Source: Paramylibacter ulvae
Lineage (GTDB): Bacteria > Pseudomonadota > Alphaproteobacteria > Rhodobacterales > Rhodobacteraceae
Assembly: GCF_014652655.1 (NCBI RefSeq)
Contig: NZ_BMZF01000003.1
Location: 62,001 to 126,000, forward strand
Length of the DNA: 64,000 nt
Reading direction: 5' to 3'
Shown here piece by piece: positions 24,999-39,377 of the stretch. Within the stretch, counting starts at the first letter, position 1; each line of letters starts with the position of its first letter. The notes below the pieces were generated by a model. It was not told the origin of the DNA and did no database searches. It worked only from the letters and a program-made list of their open reading frames with translations. The translations under genes and the position numbers were made by a program.

Positions 24999-25010
24999 TG
25001 GGTGATCAGC

Positions 25011-25053
25011 CCCACAACGGCTTCCTGACGTGGTGGCATTTCAATATTGGAGC
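25011..25053 (+). promoter_or_regulatory. SAM/SAH riboswitch in the metK leader
   Basis: A compact element directly before metK matches the SAM/SAH riboswitch class described from Rhodobacterales metK leaders. CCAC (25012-25015) pairs with GTGG (25030-25033) around a loop holding AACGGCTTCCTGA. The loop's GCTTCC can pair with the downstream TTGGAGC (25047-25053) as a pseudoknot. That second arm is also the metK Shine-Dalgarno (GGAG), so ligand binding should block translation start. It is a feedback control by S-adenosylmethionine, and possibly S-adenosylhomocysteine. Confidence 0.9.
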
Positions 25054-25058
25054 GTTAT

Positions 25059-27098: not shown

Positions 27099-28433
27099 AT
27101 GTCTGGCCACGGTACCCCCATCCCAATGACCTCGCGCGCATCTGGTGCGCTTACTGGAACGGCGAATGTCCCGGGCGATAAATCGGTTTCGCACCGCTCT
27201 TTGATCCTTGGTGCGTTGGCGGTTGGGCAAACCCATGTGACGGGTCTGCTCGAAGGGCAGGACGTGCTGGACACGGCCAAGGCAATGGCCGCATTTGGCG
27301 CGGATGTGAAACGTCTGGGTGATGGCGAATGGACAATCAATGGCGTTGGTGTTGGCGGGTTCGCCGAGCCAGAGGATGTGATTGATTGTGGTAATGCGGG
27401 AACGGGTGTGCGCTTGATTATGGGCGCAATGGCGACCAGTCCGATTAATGCAACATTTACGGGTGACGCCAGTTTGCGTTCACGCCCGATGGGGCGGATT
27501 ACGGATCCACTTGCGTTGTTTGGCGCACAGGCCGTTGGGCGCGCCAATGGGTTTTTGCCACTGACCATGGTTGGGGCGCAAAACCCGATGCCCGTGCGCT
27601 ATACATCCCCACATCCATCAGCACAGATTAAATCCGCTGTATTGCTTGCAGGGTTGAATGTGGCGGGTGATACCGTGTTGATTGAAAAAGAAAAAACTCG
27701 CGATCATTCTGAACGTATGTTGCGAGGGTTCGGCGCGGATGTGACCACGGTTGAAACGGATGAAGGTTTTGAAATCACACTGAAGGGGCAACCTGAATTA
27801 AAGGCGCAAACCATCGCGGTTCCACGCGATCCAAGCTCTGCTGCCTTTCCTGTTTGTGCGGCCTTGATTGTCGAGGGTTCGGATATTCTTGTGCCCAATA
27901 TCGGGTTGAACCCAACCCGCGCTGGGCTGTTCACCACATTGGTTGAAATGGGCGCGGATATTACATTTGAAAATGAACGCGAAGAGGGTGGCGAACCGGT
28001 TGCCGATCTGCGCGTGCGTTCCAGCAAATTAACAGGTGTCGAGGTTCCTCCAGAACGCGCGCCTAGCATGATAGATGAATACCCGATCCTGTCGGCCGTG
28101 GCCGCATTTGCCAGCGGAAAAACCGTGATGCGTGGCGTCAAAGAGTTGCGGGTCAAGGAATGCGACCGCATTGATGCGATGGCGCGTGGGTTGGAAGCCA
28201 ACGGTGTGAAAATCGAAGAGGGTGACGATTTTTTAATTGTACATGGCCAAGACGGAAGCGTGCGCGGCGGGGGAACCTGTGAAACGCATTTGGATCATCG
28301 CATTGCGATGTCATTTCTGTGTATGGGGCTGGCGACGGATGAGGCTGTGAATGTTGATGATGGCGGTGCAATCATGACAAGTTTTCCAATATTTCAAGAG
28401 CTTATGCGTAATCTGGGCGCAGATATTTCATGA
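27099..28433 (+). CDS. aroA: 3-phosphoshikimate 1-carboxyvinyltransferase (EPSP synthase)
   Basis: EPSP synthase of the shikimate pathway, joining shikimate 3-phosphate and PEP. Motifs are [57 protein letters not shown] and [10 protein letters not shown]. The SAQ-K and RDH patterns and the overall wording resemble the alphaproteobacterial class represented by the CP4 enzyme more than the E. coli class. ATG 27099 has AGGA six bases upstream; the longer frame from 27054 is rejected. It overlaps cmk by four bases (ATGA). Confidence 0.96.
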
Positions 28434-29065
28434 GCTTTACCGTCGCCATAGATGGACCAGCGGCGGCGGGAAAGGGCACGGTTGCGCGTGCTTTGGCGGA
28501 TCATTTTGGATTTGCATATCTTGATACGGGATTGTTGTACCGCGCGGTTGGGCGCAAGGTTTTGGATGCAAAACAACCCCTGACAGATACCGCATTTGCA
28601 TTGAAAATGGCGCAGGAATTGGGCGAATCCGATCTGTTGCGCGATGATCTGCGCAATATGGAAACGGCCACCGCGGCAAGCGCAGTTGCGGCGATGGGTG
28701 ATGTGCGCAAAGCATTGGTTTCATTCCAAAAAAGCTTTGCCAAGCGCGATGGTGGTGCGGTGCTGGATGGGCGCGATATTGGGACGGTAATTTGCCCCGA
28801 TGCGGATGTGAAATTGTTTGTAACAGCCAGCGAAGAAGTGCGTGCAGAGCGACGATATAAAGAGTTGTCAGCCAAAGGTGATGACACCAGTTTTGAAGCG
28901 GTTTTAGCGGCGTTAAAAGCACGCGATGCACAGGATGCAAAACGCGATGTTGCACCAATGGTGCAGGCGGATGATGCGGTGTTGATTGATACGTCAACGA
29001 TGTCGATCAGCGATGCGTTGGCGGCGGCGGTGGATGTTGTGAGCAAAACGTACAAATCCGCTTAA
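28430..29065 (+). CDS. cmk: Cytidylate kinase
   Basis: (d)CMP kinase of 211 residues. It has the P-loop GPAAAGKGT (8-16), [14 protein letters not shown], and the [22 protein letters not shown] segment. It phosphorylates CMP and dCMP for nucleic-acid precursors. It is coupled to aroA by an ATGA overlap. In many proteobacteria rpsA follows cmk at once. Here rpsA is 2 kb further on, past an EF-hand gene and a reverse-strand Hint gene. Confidence 0.96.
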
Positions 29066-29091
29066 CCCTCTAAAATCATTGGAAATATACG

Positions 29092-29143
29092 GTATGACAA
29101 CTGTCGGACATACGTCGGACACCCGTAGGACATGTGGCGGACA
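29092..29143. repeat. Five-copy 11-bp direct-repeat array
   Basis: Five 8-base units lie at exact 11-base steps: GTATGACA (29092), GTCGGACA (29103), GTCGGACA (29114), GTAGGACA (29125) and GGCGGACA (29136), with three-base non-conserved spacers. On the other strand each unit reads TGTCnnnC. The 11-bp period is about one helical turn, so all units face one side of DNA, as in binding sites of OmpR/PhoB-type response regulators. The period is not a multiple of three, and no gene spans it. It lies 27 bases after cmk. Confidence 0.85.
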
Positions 29144-29331: not shown

Positions 29332-29568
29332 ATGAAAAAAGCTGCTGTTGTATTGCTTGCAATGGTAATGGGTACTGCTGCGTTTGCAGCGGAATTCGCG
29401 GTTATGGACACAGACCAAGACGGTGCGTTGTCTGTCACAGAATTCGCAACTGCCTACCCTGATGCGGACGAAGATTTGTTTGGTTCAATCGACACCAACA
29501 CAGATGGAAGCCTGGACGAAATCGAAATCGCGGCGGCGATTGATGAGGAACTTTTATCCGCTGAATAA
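29332..29568 (+). CDS. Small secreted EF-hand calcium-binding protein
   Basis: A 78-residue exported protein with a signal peptide (residues 1-19, ending AAFA). It has two EF-hand loops, DTDQDGALSVTEF and DTNTDGSLDEIEI, each with the D-x-D/N-x-D-G spacing and terminal Glu. It is acidic throughout and probably binds calcium in the periplasm or outside. GGAG lies six bases before ATG 29332. It has its own leader with two hairpins and a strong terminator at 29631. Its partner is not evident. The adjacent Hint gene is on the opposite strand. Confidence 0.85.
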   Translation: MKKAAVVLLAMVMGTAAFAAEFAVMDTDQDGALSVTEFATAYPDADEDLFGSIDTNTDGSLDEIEIAAAIDEELLSAE

Positions 29569-29662: not shown

Positions 29663-29687
29663 GTTGGTGAAATGTGCAAACGGTTTT

Positions 29688-30737
29688 TCAGTATTCAAGG
29701 TTGAGTTGAGCCAAACATTTCGCTGTCAAATCATCAACACAGGGTCGCGCAATTTGTGACGACCTCTTAAATTTACTTTGTTGTGTTGGGAAAATTTCCA
29801 TCAATTCATTCGCCATAGCGGACGAGTTATCCATGTTTGGTAGATAGCTTTCGCTTAGCAAACCATTGCTATTAAGGATGTGATGTTGATCGAGCAGGAG
29901 GTGAAAATATTCGACTGTTTGCGCGGGTTCACAAATGACTGTGCGATCATTCACAAGTTTAATCGCAGGCACAAGTATTTCGGGTTGTCCAAACAAGAGC
30001 TGTGCCTGCCAGCCAGTGATGAGGATACGATGTTGTGGGGACACGACCACGTCGGTTCTCGGAATACCTTCGCCAAAGCTATCGGTACGGATACGCACGG
30101 GGCGAAAACGGGGTTCGTTTTCAAGCAAAGCCTTTGGCAGTGTTGTTTGCCAAATCTGACGTATGGGTTGTGGCTCTGAATCATAGGTGTTAACGAAATC
30201 ACCGACTTTCAAGTCTTGTATACGGCGCTGACCACTTGGCGTTGCAATCATGGAATCGGCGCTAAAACATAGAGGCGTTGCTAGGCTGGTATATGGCGTT
30301 GATGGCCCTTCGGATGTGGCAATTACCGTTAAAGGCACGCCGATCGGGGGGAAACCACCCACGCCACCCTGAAATGCAAGACCTTCAACCGTGCCATAGG
30401 ACACGCCGCCGCCCTCGTTTATATTGAAACCATAGACGTTATACGTGTTTCCATCTGGGTCTTGTAGAACCAAACCATATTCGGCCTCTACCCTGCTATT
30501 ATCGGTATAGGTTTCACCATCAAAAACCTGTGTTCCTTCTAATGTTTGGCTATTGTCGGAATCTTGAAAGTTGGCGTCAGTGTCATCAATTGTGACAGCT
30601 TCCCAATTGTTGCTGTTTAAAGTGATAGTTACACCATCGAGATGGGCGCCATTGCCAGATGTAATGCCAGATAATTGTTCACCATCTGATACGGTAATCT
30701 GTGATTCACCAAGTGCGTATATAACCTGTGTCGCCAT
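29688..30737 (-). CDS. Hint-domain protein (Hedgehog/intein fold, Hint_2 type)
   Basis: A 349-residue protein whose C-terminal half is a Hint domain: CFSADSMIATPSG begins it with the nucleophilic Cys, then RRIQDLKVGDFVNTYDS, RPVRIRTDSFGEG, SPQHRILITGW with the block-B His, and HLLLDQHHILNSNGL. The N-terminal part is a beta-rich region typical of secreted Rhodobacterales Hint_2 proteins (ISGNGAH-like and DPDGNTYNVYGF segments). There is no homing endonuclease and no Asn-Cys splicing end, so cleavage rather than splicing is expected, if any. ATG 30737 is chosen because the family starts near MATQVIYALGES; the frame stays open to a TTG at 30830. The function of this group is unknown. Confidence 0.82.
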   Translation of the reverse strand: MATQVIYALGESQITVSDGEQLSGITSGNGAHLDGVTITLNSNNWEAVTIDDTDANFQDSDNSQTLEGTQVFDGETYTDNSRVEAEYGLVLQDPDGNTYNVYGFNINEGGGVSYGTVEGLAFQGGVGGFPPIGVPLTVIATSEGPSTPYTSLATPLCFSADSMIATPSGQRRIQDLKVGDFVNTYDSEPQPIRQIWQTTLPKALLENEPRFRPVRIRTDSFGEGIPRTDVVVSPQHRILITGWQAQLLFGQPEILVPAIKLVNDRTVICEPAQTVEYFHLLLDQHHILNSNGLLSESYLPNMDNSSAMANELMEIFPTQQSKFKRSSQIARPCVDDLTAKCLAQLNLEY

Positions 30738-31068
30738 TTTTTTGAGCGTTCGCTTTCCCGTTGAGCCTTGCACATACATAGGCGACGGACTGTTTAATTT
30801 CAATAAATCCACAGATTGTACGCCTAGCAAGGCATAATTGCGCGGTTATCTGGGCAATGCCCTTTACCATCACCCAAAAATCCCCTATATGCGGCGCTAA
30901 TCGCGCAAAGCGGCGGGGCAATGACCCCATTGAGTGAGCAGGGCTGGATAAATTCTGGCCCTTTGTGTGTTTGAAGCGAACTCTTGCACGCGTGATTGTA
31001 ACGAAACCCAAAGACCCGTGGAACCAACCGCGCGGCCCGTATAAATGACTATGATAGGAAACTGATAT
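30738..31068. other. Intergenic region between Hint gene and rpsA
   Basis: This 331-base gap between divergent genes holds the likely rpsA promoter (30863-30891) and a long rpsA leader. I see no small gene or tRNA in it. The region just before rpsA contains no terminator. A TTG-started extension of the Hint gene could reach 30830. Confidence 0.5.
30863..30891 (+). promoter_or_regulatory. Possible rpsA promoter
   Basis: TTTACC (30863-30868) and TATATG (30886-30891) are separated by 17 bases. Each hexamer matches the sigma-70 consensus at about four of six positions. It would give a leader of about 170 bases before rpsA. Confidence 0.4.
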
Positions 31069-38192: not shown

Positions 38193-38252
38193 GATATTTC
38201 CTTTCGTGAAACTGTTGCGGTGTCATGTGTTATGCAGTGATTATTCATGCCA

Positions 38253-39377
38253 TCAATCAACAAAGGTTTTTTGCAAGCTGCGATCCCAAAACGTGTCATC
38301 GTTTAATACTTCAACAAACCGTTTCGCGGTGTCACCACCACCAAAGCCAGTGTCAGCATCAAATTTTTGCCCCCAAGAATTGGCGAAAAACGCTGCAATT
38401 TTATCGCCGTCATTTGCGGCTGTTTGGGTGATCGATGGCGCGTTTGAACGATTTGTTTGGCGTGTGCCAACATCAAGGCTCGGCACACCTAAAAATGGCG
38501 CTTCGCGCACACCTGCGGAGCTGTTGCCGATTAACGCCTTTGCGTTGCGCAACAATTCGGAAAAATACAAAAACCGCATGGATGGTATTTGACGGAAACG
38601 ATCCGCAGGTAATTTGGCAATTGCGTCGAAAATTTCCGTTGATCCTGGATCATTGTTGGGCAGGATCACGACGAAATTTTTGCCGCTTTGATCCAAGGCT
38701 GCGAATAAATCGCGCGCCTGTTGCCCCATTGATTTGGTTTCGGATGTCACCGGGTGAAATGTTACGATGCCATAGTCATCAAATGGAATTTCATAGCGGG
38801 TTTTGACTTGATCAAGGCTTATCCCCGTTGGCGCCCCGTGCGCATCTAGTTCGGGCGATCCAATGGTATAAATCGTTTCAGCAGCCTCGCCCAATGCCAT
38901 CACACGTGATTTTGCATTTTCTGAGCTGACAAAATGTGCCGCCGCCAATTTGGAATTACAATGGCGGAAAATTTCGTCGATCGTGCCTGATACTTCGCCA
39001 CCCTCAATATGTGCGCAGCGCACATAGTTGGTTGCGCAAACCAAGGAACAGGCCAATGCTTCGACGCGATCGCCGTGAATGACCACCAGATCGGGTTGGC
39101 TTTCACGGATAAAATCGGAAAAACCAAGCACGGTTTTTGACAGAATTAAATCCTGTGGATCGCCTTCGCGTTGGTTGATAAATTCCGCGATTTCGACACC
39201 TGTAACGCGTTGCACCTCGATCCTCGTTTGGCCATAGCGTTGCATCATATGCATGCCCGTGACGAAAAAGGTAACACGAAAACCTGCATCGCGCGCAGCA
39301 ATGGCCAGCGGTTCCATTTTGCCAAAATCCGCGCGTGTTCCCGTGACGAAAACCAGATGTTTCTGGGAATTAGGCAT
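38253..39377 (-). CDS. neuC: UDP-N-acetylglucosamine 2-epimerase (hydrolysing), NeuC/LegG type
   Basis: A 374-residue hydrolysing epimerase of the GT-B fold that releases ManNAc (or a deoxy analogue) and UDP for nonulosonate synthesis. Motifs are FVTGTRADFGKM, FVTGMHMMQRYG, HIEGGEVSGTIDE, FHPVTSE and GNSSAGVREAPFLGVPSLDVGTRQ. To my memory these are close to the meningococcal SiaA enzyme, favouring Neu5Ac, but LegG-type enzymes look similar. ATG 39377 overlaps the neuB stop by eight bases; the longer frame to 39422 is rejected. Confidence 0.9.
   Translation of the reverse strand: MPNSQKHLVFVTGTRADFGKMEPLAIAARDAGFRVTFFVTGMHMMQRYGQTRIEVQRVTGVEIAEFINQREGDPQDLILSKTVLGFSDFIRESQPDLVVIHGDRVEALACSLVCATNYVRCAHIEGGEVSGTIDEIFRHCNSKLAAAHFVSSENAKSRVMALGEAAETIYTIGSPELDAHGAPTGISLDQVKTRYEIPFDDYGIVTFHPVTSETKSMGQQARDLFAALDQSGKNFVVILPNNDPGSTEIFDAIAKLPADRFRQIPSMRFLYFSELLRNAKALIGNSSAGVREAPFLGVPSLDVGTRQTNRSNAPSITQTAANDGDKIAAFFANSWGQKFDADTGFGGGDTAKRFVEVLNDDTFWDRSLQKTFVD

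What the first reader, a model, noticed from the sequence alone, without database searches (positions are those of the whole stretch)
29092..29143. Five 11-bp-phased direct repeats between cmk and an EF-hand gene
Five copies of an 8-base unit (consensus GTCGGACA) recur at exactly 11-base steps. The middle three match best and the outer two are diverged. One-turn phasing and direct orientation suggest cooperative binding by an OmpR/PhoB-type response regulator; the reverse strand reads TGTC at each step, reminiscent of PhoB half-sites but not identical. The most likely target is the EF-hand gene or expression past cmk. I know of no named element of this form.
Basis: partly seen in the sequence, partly recalled or inferred. 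Interest (0 to 1): 0.62.

Follow-up and report, generated by a model that had tools for sequence, protein, structure and literature searches.

The report
Antitoxin-like protein's dispersed 11-bp arrays
The repeat is one of about 18 short arrays spread over this marine bacterium's genome, and comparison with relatives suggests they are docking sites for a stand-alone antitoxin-type DNA-binding protein whose preferred sequence has changed together with its sites between lineages.

Summary
The array is real: five 8-base units at exact 11-bp steps, 29092-29143, one of 18 sites in this genome (reversed-pattern controls 0-1). It is kept at the same place in Amylibacter kogurei. Between the two species core positions (G...GRCA) are 91-99% identical, while spacer positions change faster than the flank. 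Related Rhodobacterales carry arrays of the same pitch, some at the same sites (cmk, gltD|gltB, lpdA, prfC), with other units ("dialects"). In 14 genomes the dialect recurs in front of a BrnA-type (PF14384, ribbon-helix-helix) gene; G177 and G019 are exceptions. Units read from that promoter in three genomes led to arrays elsewhere in exactly those 3 of 33. Among the 30 best-matching such genes of the family sample, 18 have a period-11 array upstream, against 2 of 210 control windows. Strand residue 1 (K or R) tracks the dialect. The binder is therefore probably this BrnA-like protein, not an OmpR/PhoB regulator, and the EF-hand gene is not a conserved target. What the dispersed sites do is open: they lie at convergent ends, divergent promoters and inside operons alike, and gene turnover clusters on their 3' side. 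All evidence is comparative; nothing is biochemical.

The parts
29092..29143 (+). five-unit array, 11-bp pitch, consensus GKVNGACANNY; units at 29092, 29103, 29114, 29125, 29136
   Evidence: orthologous array in G001 (L082), 87% identical
28430..29065 (+). cmk, conserved 5'-side neighbour; arrays also follow cmk in G001, G010 and G032
29062..29067 (+). TTAACC overlapping the cmk stop codon, 24 bp before the array; TTAACC/GTTAAC is enriched beside arrays in related genomes
   Evidence: enrichment. It is broken in G001, so its role here is doubtful
29332..29568 (+). small EF-hand protein with a signal-like N-terminus on the array's 3' side; found only in G000 and G001 among 30 cmk loci
   Evidence: Pfam EF-hand_5 1.3e-8
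29665..30859 (.). species-variable stretch (Hint_2-domain gene here, other genes in G001), starting about 0.57 kb 3' of the array start
   Evidence: collinearity gap 1195 versus 1458 bp; Hint_2 3.3e-48

Best explanation
The array is a high-occupancy binding site for a chromosomal BrnA-type ribbon-helix-helix (RHH) protein without an evident toxin partner, encoded here at G000:C3:174145-174546, outside the window. I infer that one RHH dimer reads each 11-bp repeat with its beta-strand and that neighbouring dimers stack along one face of the DNA. An array in the protein's own promoter is seen by comparison, and I read it as autoregulation. The same protein would occupy the other 17 arrays of this genome, whose sequence has changed in step with it (dialects). 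At those sites the bound filament most likely acts as an operator or roadblock at gene boundaries, separating a conserved neighbour from variable genes on the 3' side. That last step is inference and the weakest part.
For: BrnA-like gene just 3' of an array in G000/G001, G032 and G017. Arrays, judged by eye, upstream of 14 of 19 matches, with lineage-specific units. Prediction test: units from the promoters of G012, G016 and G030 searched in 33 genomes: 24 hits (10, 9, 5; the three promoter arrays included), all in those three, control 0. Test without assuming a unit: upstream lag 11 significant at 18 of 30 homologs, 2 of 210 control windows, lags 9, 10, 12, 13 at 0-2 of 30. Dialect searches find arrays in 10 of 17 genomes with the homolog and 0 of 16 without, single isolated GACA x3 hits not counted. 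gltD site: array in 9 of 16 genomes with the homolog. G008 has two homologs with two promoter dialects, the second also at its gltD site. Phased TGCA/TACA units in 11 of 16 loci with strand residue 1 = R, 1 of 24 with K. Core conserved, spacer hypervariable.
Against: No binding data. G177 and G128 have R-type homologs without a clear promoter array; G103 is R-type with a GTATGAC unit. G019 has array-like DNA at gltD but no homolog at E 1e-6. The G027 homolog looks frameshifted. The G030 gltD array mixes GTATGGCA and GTCGGTAT units. Strand residue S or A, which goes with missing arrays in five genomes, occurs with arrays in G116 and G064. The residue-dialect split was defined after seeing the table, and relatedness is not corrected for. 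Mixed gene orientation and function leave the regulatory step unproven.
Confidence: 0.6

Rival explanations
1. Same binder, but the arrays organise or mark the chromosome (centromere-, macrodomain- or segregation-like, as MatP/matS or StbA/stbDR) rather than control neighbouring genes.
For: Sites are indifferent to gene orientation: 5 convergent, 5 divergent, 8 tandem in G000. Array polarity follows GC3 skew in G001 17 of 17, G000 13 of 17 windows and G032 7 of 9. R388 stbDRs are two sets of five 9-bp repeats spaced by 2 bp, the same pitch and number (passages of PMC3098194).
Against: With dnaA as origin and the terminus taken as opposite (hand count), polarity holds for G067 9/13, G030 3/5 and G032 6/7 of the contig that carries dnaA (positions). 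No motor partner was looked for.
Confidence: 0.25
2. The arrays are landing or recombination sites for small gene cassettes that enter on the 3' side.
For: G000/G001 homology breaks on the 3' side within 2.1 kb in 12 of 17 pairs, five at the array's end, against 2 of 17 on the 5' side; away from arrays about 3 breaks per 100 kb. Same one-sided insertion at the sarcosine-oxidase-like site in G032/G027 and G016/G012. Genes there include an HTH_3 (HigA-like), a DarT and a DUF3800 gene, and a HEPN match below cut-off.
Against: The far ends of the inserts that I printed share no motif by eye; no recombinase was sought; seven of the 12 breaks lie 0.05-2 kb beyond the array's end. Arrays persist at the same sites across lineages.
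Confidence: 0.15
3. OmpR/PhoB-type response-regulator operator controlling the EF-hand gene.
For: Direct 11-bp repeats with TGTC on the reverse strand look like Pho-box half-sites (recalled).
Against: Dialect matches the BrnA-like gene's promoter. No EF-hand gene at the cmk array of G010/G032. Convergent sites have no promoter to control.
Confidence: 0.04
4. Neutral simple-sequence repeats produced by replication slippage.
For: Near-pure 11-bp tandem repeats turn up in other phyla; spacers change fast.
Against: Core nearly invariant between species, conserved sites and orientation, matching promoter dialect.
Confidence: 0.02

Closest known systems
StbA/stbDR of plasmid R388 (PMC3098194, passages read)
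   Same: Sets of five direct repeats at 11-bp pitch around the promoter of the binder's operon; the motif also occurs at other promoters of the plasmid
   Different: Plasmid segregation and transfer system; homology to StbA was not tested; ours is spread over 10 contigs, one set per site, 18 sites
BrnT/BrnA type II toxin-antitoxin operons (recalled)
   Same: BrnA domain PF14384; antitoxin-type autoregulation
   Different: No toxin gene recognised next to the homologs (not scanned for); many dispersed arrays instead of one operator
MatP/matS of E. coli (recalled)
   Same: RHH protein with about 20 dispersed chromosomal sites
   Different: matS is a single short site limited to the Ter region; here sites are tandem arrays, scattered, with dialects that differ between lineages
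ParR/parC of plasmid R1 (recalled)
   Same: RHH protein on clusters of 11-bp direct repeats
   Different: One plasmid locus beside the motor gene parM
TAACTGA intergenic direct repeats of Beggiatoaceae (PMC4679880, abstract and passages read)
   Same: Short intergenic direct repeats at many sites, sporadic phylogeny
   Different: Identical heptamers, mostly just before start codons; translational role proposed; binder only guessed at

Membership tests
BrnA antitoxin family (PF14384) | PF14384 domain above the gathering score | tested here: met
   G000 protein 49.6 bits against cut-off 26.1; 19 of 19 aligned homologs match at E<=0.001
BrnT/BrnA toxin-antitoxin operon | BrnT toxin gene directly beside brnA | tested here: inconclusive
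   Of 24 homolog loci, 20 gave a called upstream neighbour: divergent in 15, same strand in 5 at 60-342 bp (a 140-codon one in G008); none was scanned for PF04365 and downstream genes were not judged
Operator of the BrnA-like protein | same repeat unit in the protein's promoter and at other sites of the same genome | tested here: met
   14 genomes agree (G000, 1, 8, 10, 12, 16, 17, 27, 30, 32, 67, 96, 102, 103); G010, G017, G096, G102 and G103 had one non-promoter array each in the pattern searches, and G102's promoter shows two units; G177 and G019 do not fit
Operator of the BrnA-like protein | physical binding of the array | not testable with these tools
   needs gel shift, footprint or ChIP-seq
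Pho box / OmpR-family operator | PhoB-type TGTCA half-sites and a phosphate regulon | tested here: not met
   four of five reverse-strand units read TGTCC, only the 29092 unit reads TGTCA; no phosphate-gene set recognised among the neighbours read
Partition site of parC/stbDR type | cis-acting segregation with binder and motor | not testable with these tools
   architecture agrees; function untested
MatP/matS | sites confined to the terminus macrodomain | tested here: not met
Simple sequence tandem repeat | near-identical units without a selected core | tested here: not met
   positions 1, 5, 7 are 98-99% and positions 9-11 71-76% identical between species, flank 92.7%

The most novel reading that the evidence does not exclude
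A solo antitoxin-derived RHH protein has become a chromosome-wide architectural or boundary protein in part of the Rhodobacterales. Its phased arrays are kept at fixed places next to core genes, its recognition dialect has switched genome-wide several times through changes of one or two strand residues, and accessory genes accumulate on one side of each bound array.
Probability: 0.33. Interest if true: 0.87.

Novelty: new variant of a known kind. Interest (0 to 1): 0.72.

Why it matters
It turns an unexplained repeat into a testable protein-DNA pair in a large group of marine bacteria. Related genomes offer a natural experiment in how a DNA-binding protein and its many sites can change specificity together, with strand residues 1 (K/R) and 5 (R/Y/S) as candidate determinants. 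It may also show what becomes of an antitoxin-type protein without its toxin, and it gives a marker for gene-insertion hot spots.

Tried and rejected
Response regulator and EF-hand regulation: dropped (see verdict). Rho utilisation site or RNA element: reverse-strand YC at 11-nt steps is suggestive, but array orientation does not follow genes, and Rfam at gathering thresholds finds nothing at the array. Integron- or transposon-like attachment: no shared far end seen. Replication-strand rule: strong in A. kogurei, not shown to be general; in G067 11 of 13 agree after turning the arrays, but there the skew follows coding strand. I first read the G067 arrays on the wrong strand (GCCCGACA); the matching reading is GTCGGGCA. 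Rows set aside: one search hits in G270, G281 (no homolog at E 1e-5) and G317 (homolog without array); single isolated GACA x3 hits in G002, G010, G013, G019, G021 and G029. A PDB profile search found nothing. PADLOC on ten cargo proteins gave DarT and weak RmrA matches. In one search the automatic "GG" type is loose in GC-rich DNA and also labels loci without arrays; G070 was mistyped and is in neither group; I rely on the phased TGCA/TACA count, which was chosen after seeing the table. Paper searches listed nothing that I recognised as these arrays; I saw listings only, apart from the two papers named. None of the 12 listed papers (of 1,617) holds BrnA.

Full report
Observation. The five units at 29092-29143 are as described. 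A three-unit pattern finds 12 places in the genome, reversed control 0; a two-unit pattern 30 against 1; GACA x3 at 11-bp steps 36 against 0. Merged, there are 18 sites on 10 of 25 contigs, one of them in front of the BrnA-like gene described below. By my own gene calls none lies inside a gene (two touch a gene end by up to 21 bp): 5 convergent, 5 divergent and 8 tandem pairs.

Close relative. G001 has contigs of the same lengths as Amylibacter kogurei 4G11, listed by NCBI as Paramylibacter kogurei, Rhodobacterales, Paracoccaceae. I fetched 17 array loci from it; each pairs with one of the 18 in G000, and L066 has no partner among them. Over 85 aligned units identity is 99% at positions 1 and 5, 98% at 7, 94% at 8, 91% at 6, 92% at 2, 82-85% at 3-4, and 71-76% at 9-11; the 5' flank is 92.7% (1472 of 1588). 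So the core is constrained and the spacer changes faster than its surroundings. Six arrays (62-78% identical) look replaced while their sites are kept.

One-sided turnover. In the 17 pairs collinearity breaks on the array's 3' side within 2.1 kb in 12 and on the 5' side in 2; pair L077/L093 has both. Five of the 3' breaks coincide with the array's end. In about 104 kb of compared background six gaps were seen, three of them within 2.1 kb 3' of an array. For the window's array the break starts 0.57 kb downstream. G032 versus G027 and G016 versus G012 show a 3'-side insertion at one and the same site, beside sarcosine-oxidase-like genes (names by my reading). Genes on variable 3' sides include an HTH_3 (HigA-like), a DarT, a DUF3800 and a weakly HEPN-like one. 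Far ends share no motif that I could see.

Dialects. The set the tool calls "genus" is broad: cmk identity to G000 is 52-66% for all matches but G001's. Among 30 cmk loci, arrays follow cmk in G000, G001, G010 and G032, the last two with GTATGGMANNC (L224 fell one point under the flag but is plain). That unit forms arrays in 4 of 33 genomes. Sites shared across lineages with the same neighbour and orientation are cmk, lpdA, prfC, gltD|gltB and cspA with G000, and a site in the S10 ribosomal operon between G032 and G067 (gene names by my reading, an L2 leader found in L280). prfC starts at -46 from the array in G000, G016, G017 and G030. Dialects are not pure: G000 arrays contain GTATGACA and GTATGGCA units, and the G030 gltD array mixes GTATGGCA with GTCGGTAT.

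The binder. A small protein recurs 3' of an array in G000/G001, G032 and G017. It belongs to the BrnA-antitoxin family (19 of 19 homologs). Of 33 genomes 17 have it at E<=1e-6. Upstream of 14 of the 19 matches (18 genes; G027 counts twice) I see an 11-bp array; G002, G004, G013, G021 and G029 lack it. In those five, strand residue 5 is S or E, but S and A also occur with arrays in G116 and G064. Units read from the promoters of G012, G016 and G030 were searched in all 33 genomes: 10, 9 and 5 hits in those three (8, 9 and 5 sites, one per genome being the promoter array itself), none elsewhere, control none. In other genera the promoter dialect equals the genome dialect in G067, G096, G103 and, with two units, G102; G177 is an exception. 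The G096 gene was not confirmed as an open frame of usual size.

Family-wide check without assuming a unit. 95 of 295 family genomes have a match at E<=1e-8, ordinary BrnA antitoxins probably included at the weak end. For the 30 loci returned, the best matches, upstream lag 11 is the sole best of nine lags in 19 and significant against shuffles in 18; seven control windows per locus give 2 of 210, and lags 9, 10, 12 and 13 give 2, 2, 1 and 0 of 30. Six of the 30 genomes had been examined before. Phased TGCA/TACA units occur in 11 of 16 loci with R at strand residue 1 and in 1 of 24 with K; the automatic two-class Fisher test gives p = 1e-4. The split was defined after seeing the table, and relatedness is not corrected for.

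Association at one site. Downstream of gltD, readable in 27 of 28 loci given to the test, a significant period-11 array is present in 9 of 16 genomes with the homolog (G015 borderline). Of 11 without it, ten show none (G014 passes the shuffle test but does not look like an array) and G019 shows an array-like stretch by eye (homolog status). G008 has two homologs with two promoter dialects, and its gltD copy has the second one.

Reading. Who binds is well supported by coevolution, though not by biochemistry. What the dispersed sites do is not. Convergent sites argue against plain promoter control. Polarity with replication is strong in A. kogurei (17 of 17 by GC3 skew; 13 of 17 windows in G000; 7 of 9 in G032) but weaker when dnaA is taken as origin (G067 9/13, G030 3/5, G032 6/7). 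I commit to operator/roadblock at gene boundaries, with chromosome organisation as the main rival.

Known systems. R388 stbDRs have the same number and pitch (passages of PMC3098194). MatP/matS and ParR/parC are recalled analogues. My searches listed no paper that I recognised as describing these arrays or BrnA in Rhodobacterales.

Noticed in passing
intergenic regions of arrays in G012, G016, G030 (L340-L363) and others: GTTAAC is enriched beside arrays: 24 in 5.6 kb against 1 in 6.2 kb of other intergenic DNA in the GTCKRKAT lineages, 7 in 4.6 kb against 3 in 11.3 kb in the GTATGG ones, 5 in 4.0 kb against 2 in 21.6 kb in G000+G001; in 9 of 22 GTCKRKAT arrays it lies exactly 26 bp after the third unit. 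It resembles alphaproteobacterial CtrA half-sites (recalled).
   Followed up: partly
L280-L283 (G032), L293 (G010): A roughly 530-bp element, 74-84% identical between the four copies in G032, starts at the array's 5' edge and contains conserved inverted repeats; no Rfam match in L280-L283 beyond an L2 leader.
   Followed up: partly
window 25006-25054: SAM-SAH riboswitch (RF01727) directly before the metK-like gene.
   Followed up: no
L129, L134, L135, L140, L165, L175 (Bacteroidota), L139 (Parabacteroides gordonii), L145 (Burkholderiaceae): Degenerate 11-bp arrays of the form GNNNGACNNNY outside Alphaproteobacteria; whether a BrnA-like protein goes with them was not checked.
   Followed up: no
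G008 (L334, L338): Two BrnA-like paralogs with two different array dialects in one genome.
   Followed up: partly
L071/L086 against L292, L344, L354: prfC <- array -> BrnA-like gene looks ancestral; in G000/G001 the gene lies elsewhere but an array at prfC remains.
   Followed up: partly
window 38195-38257: G001 holds about 1.36 kb where this genome has 61 bp, with no array found nearby.
   Followed up: no
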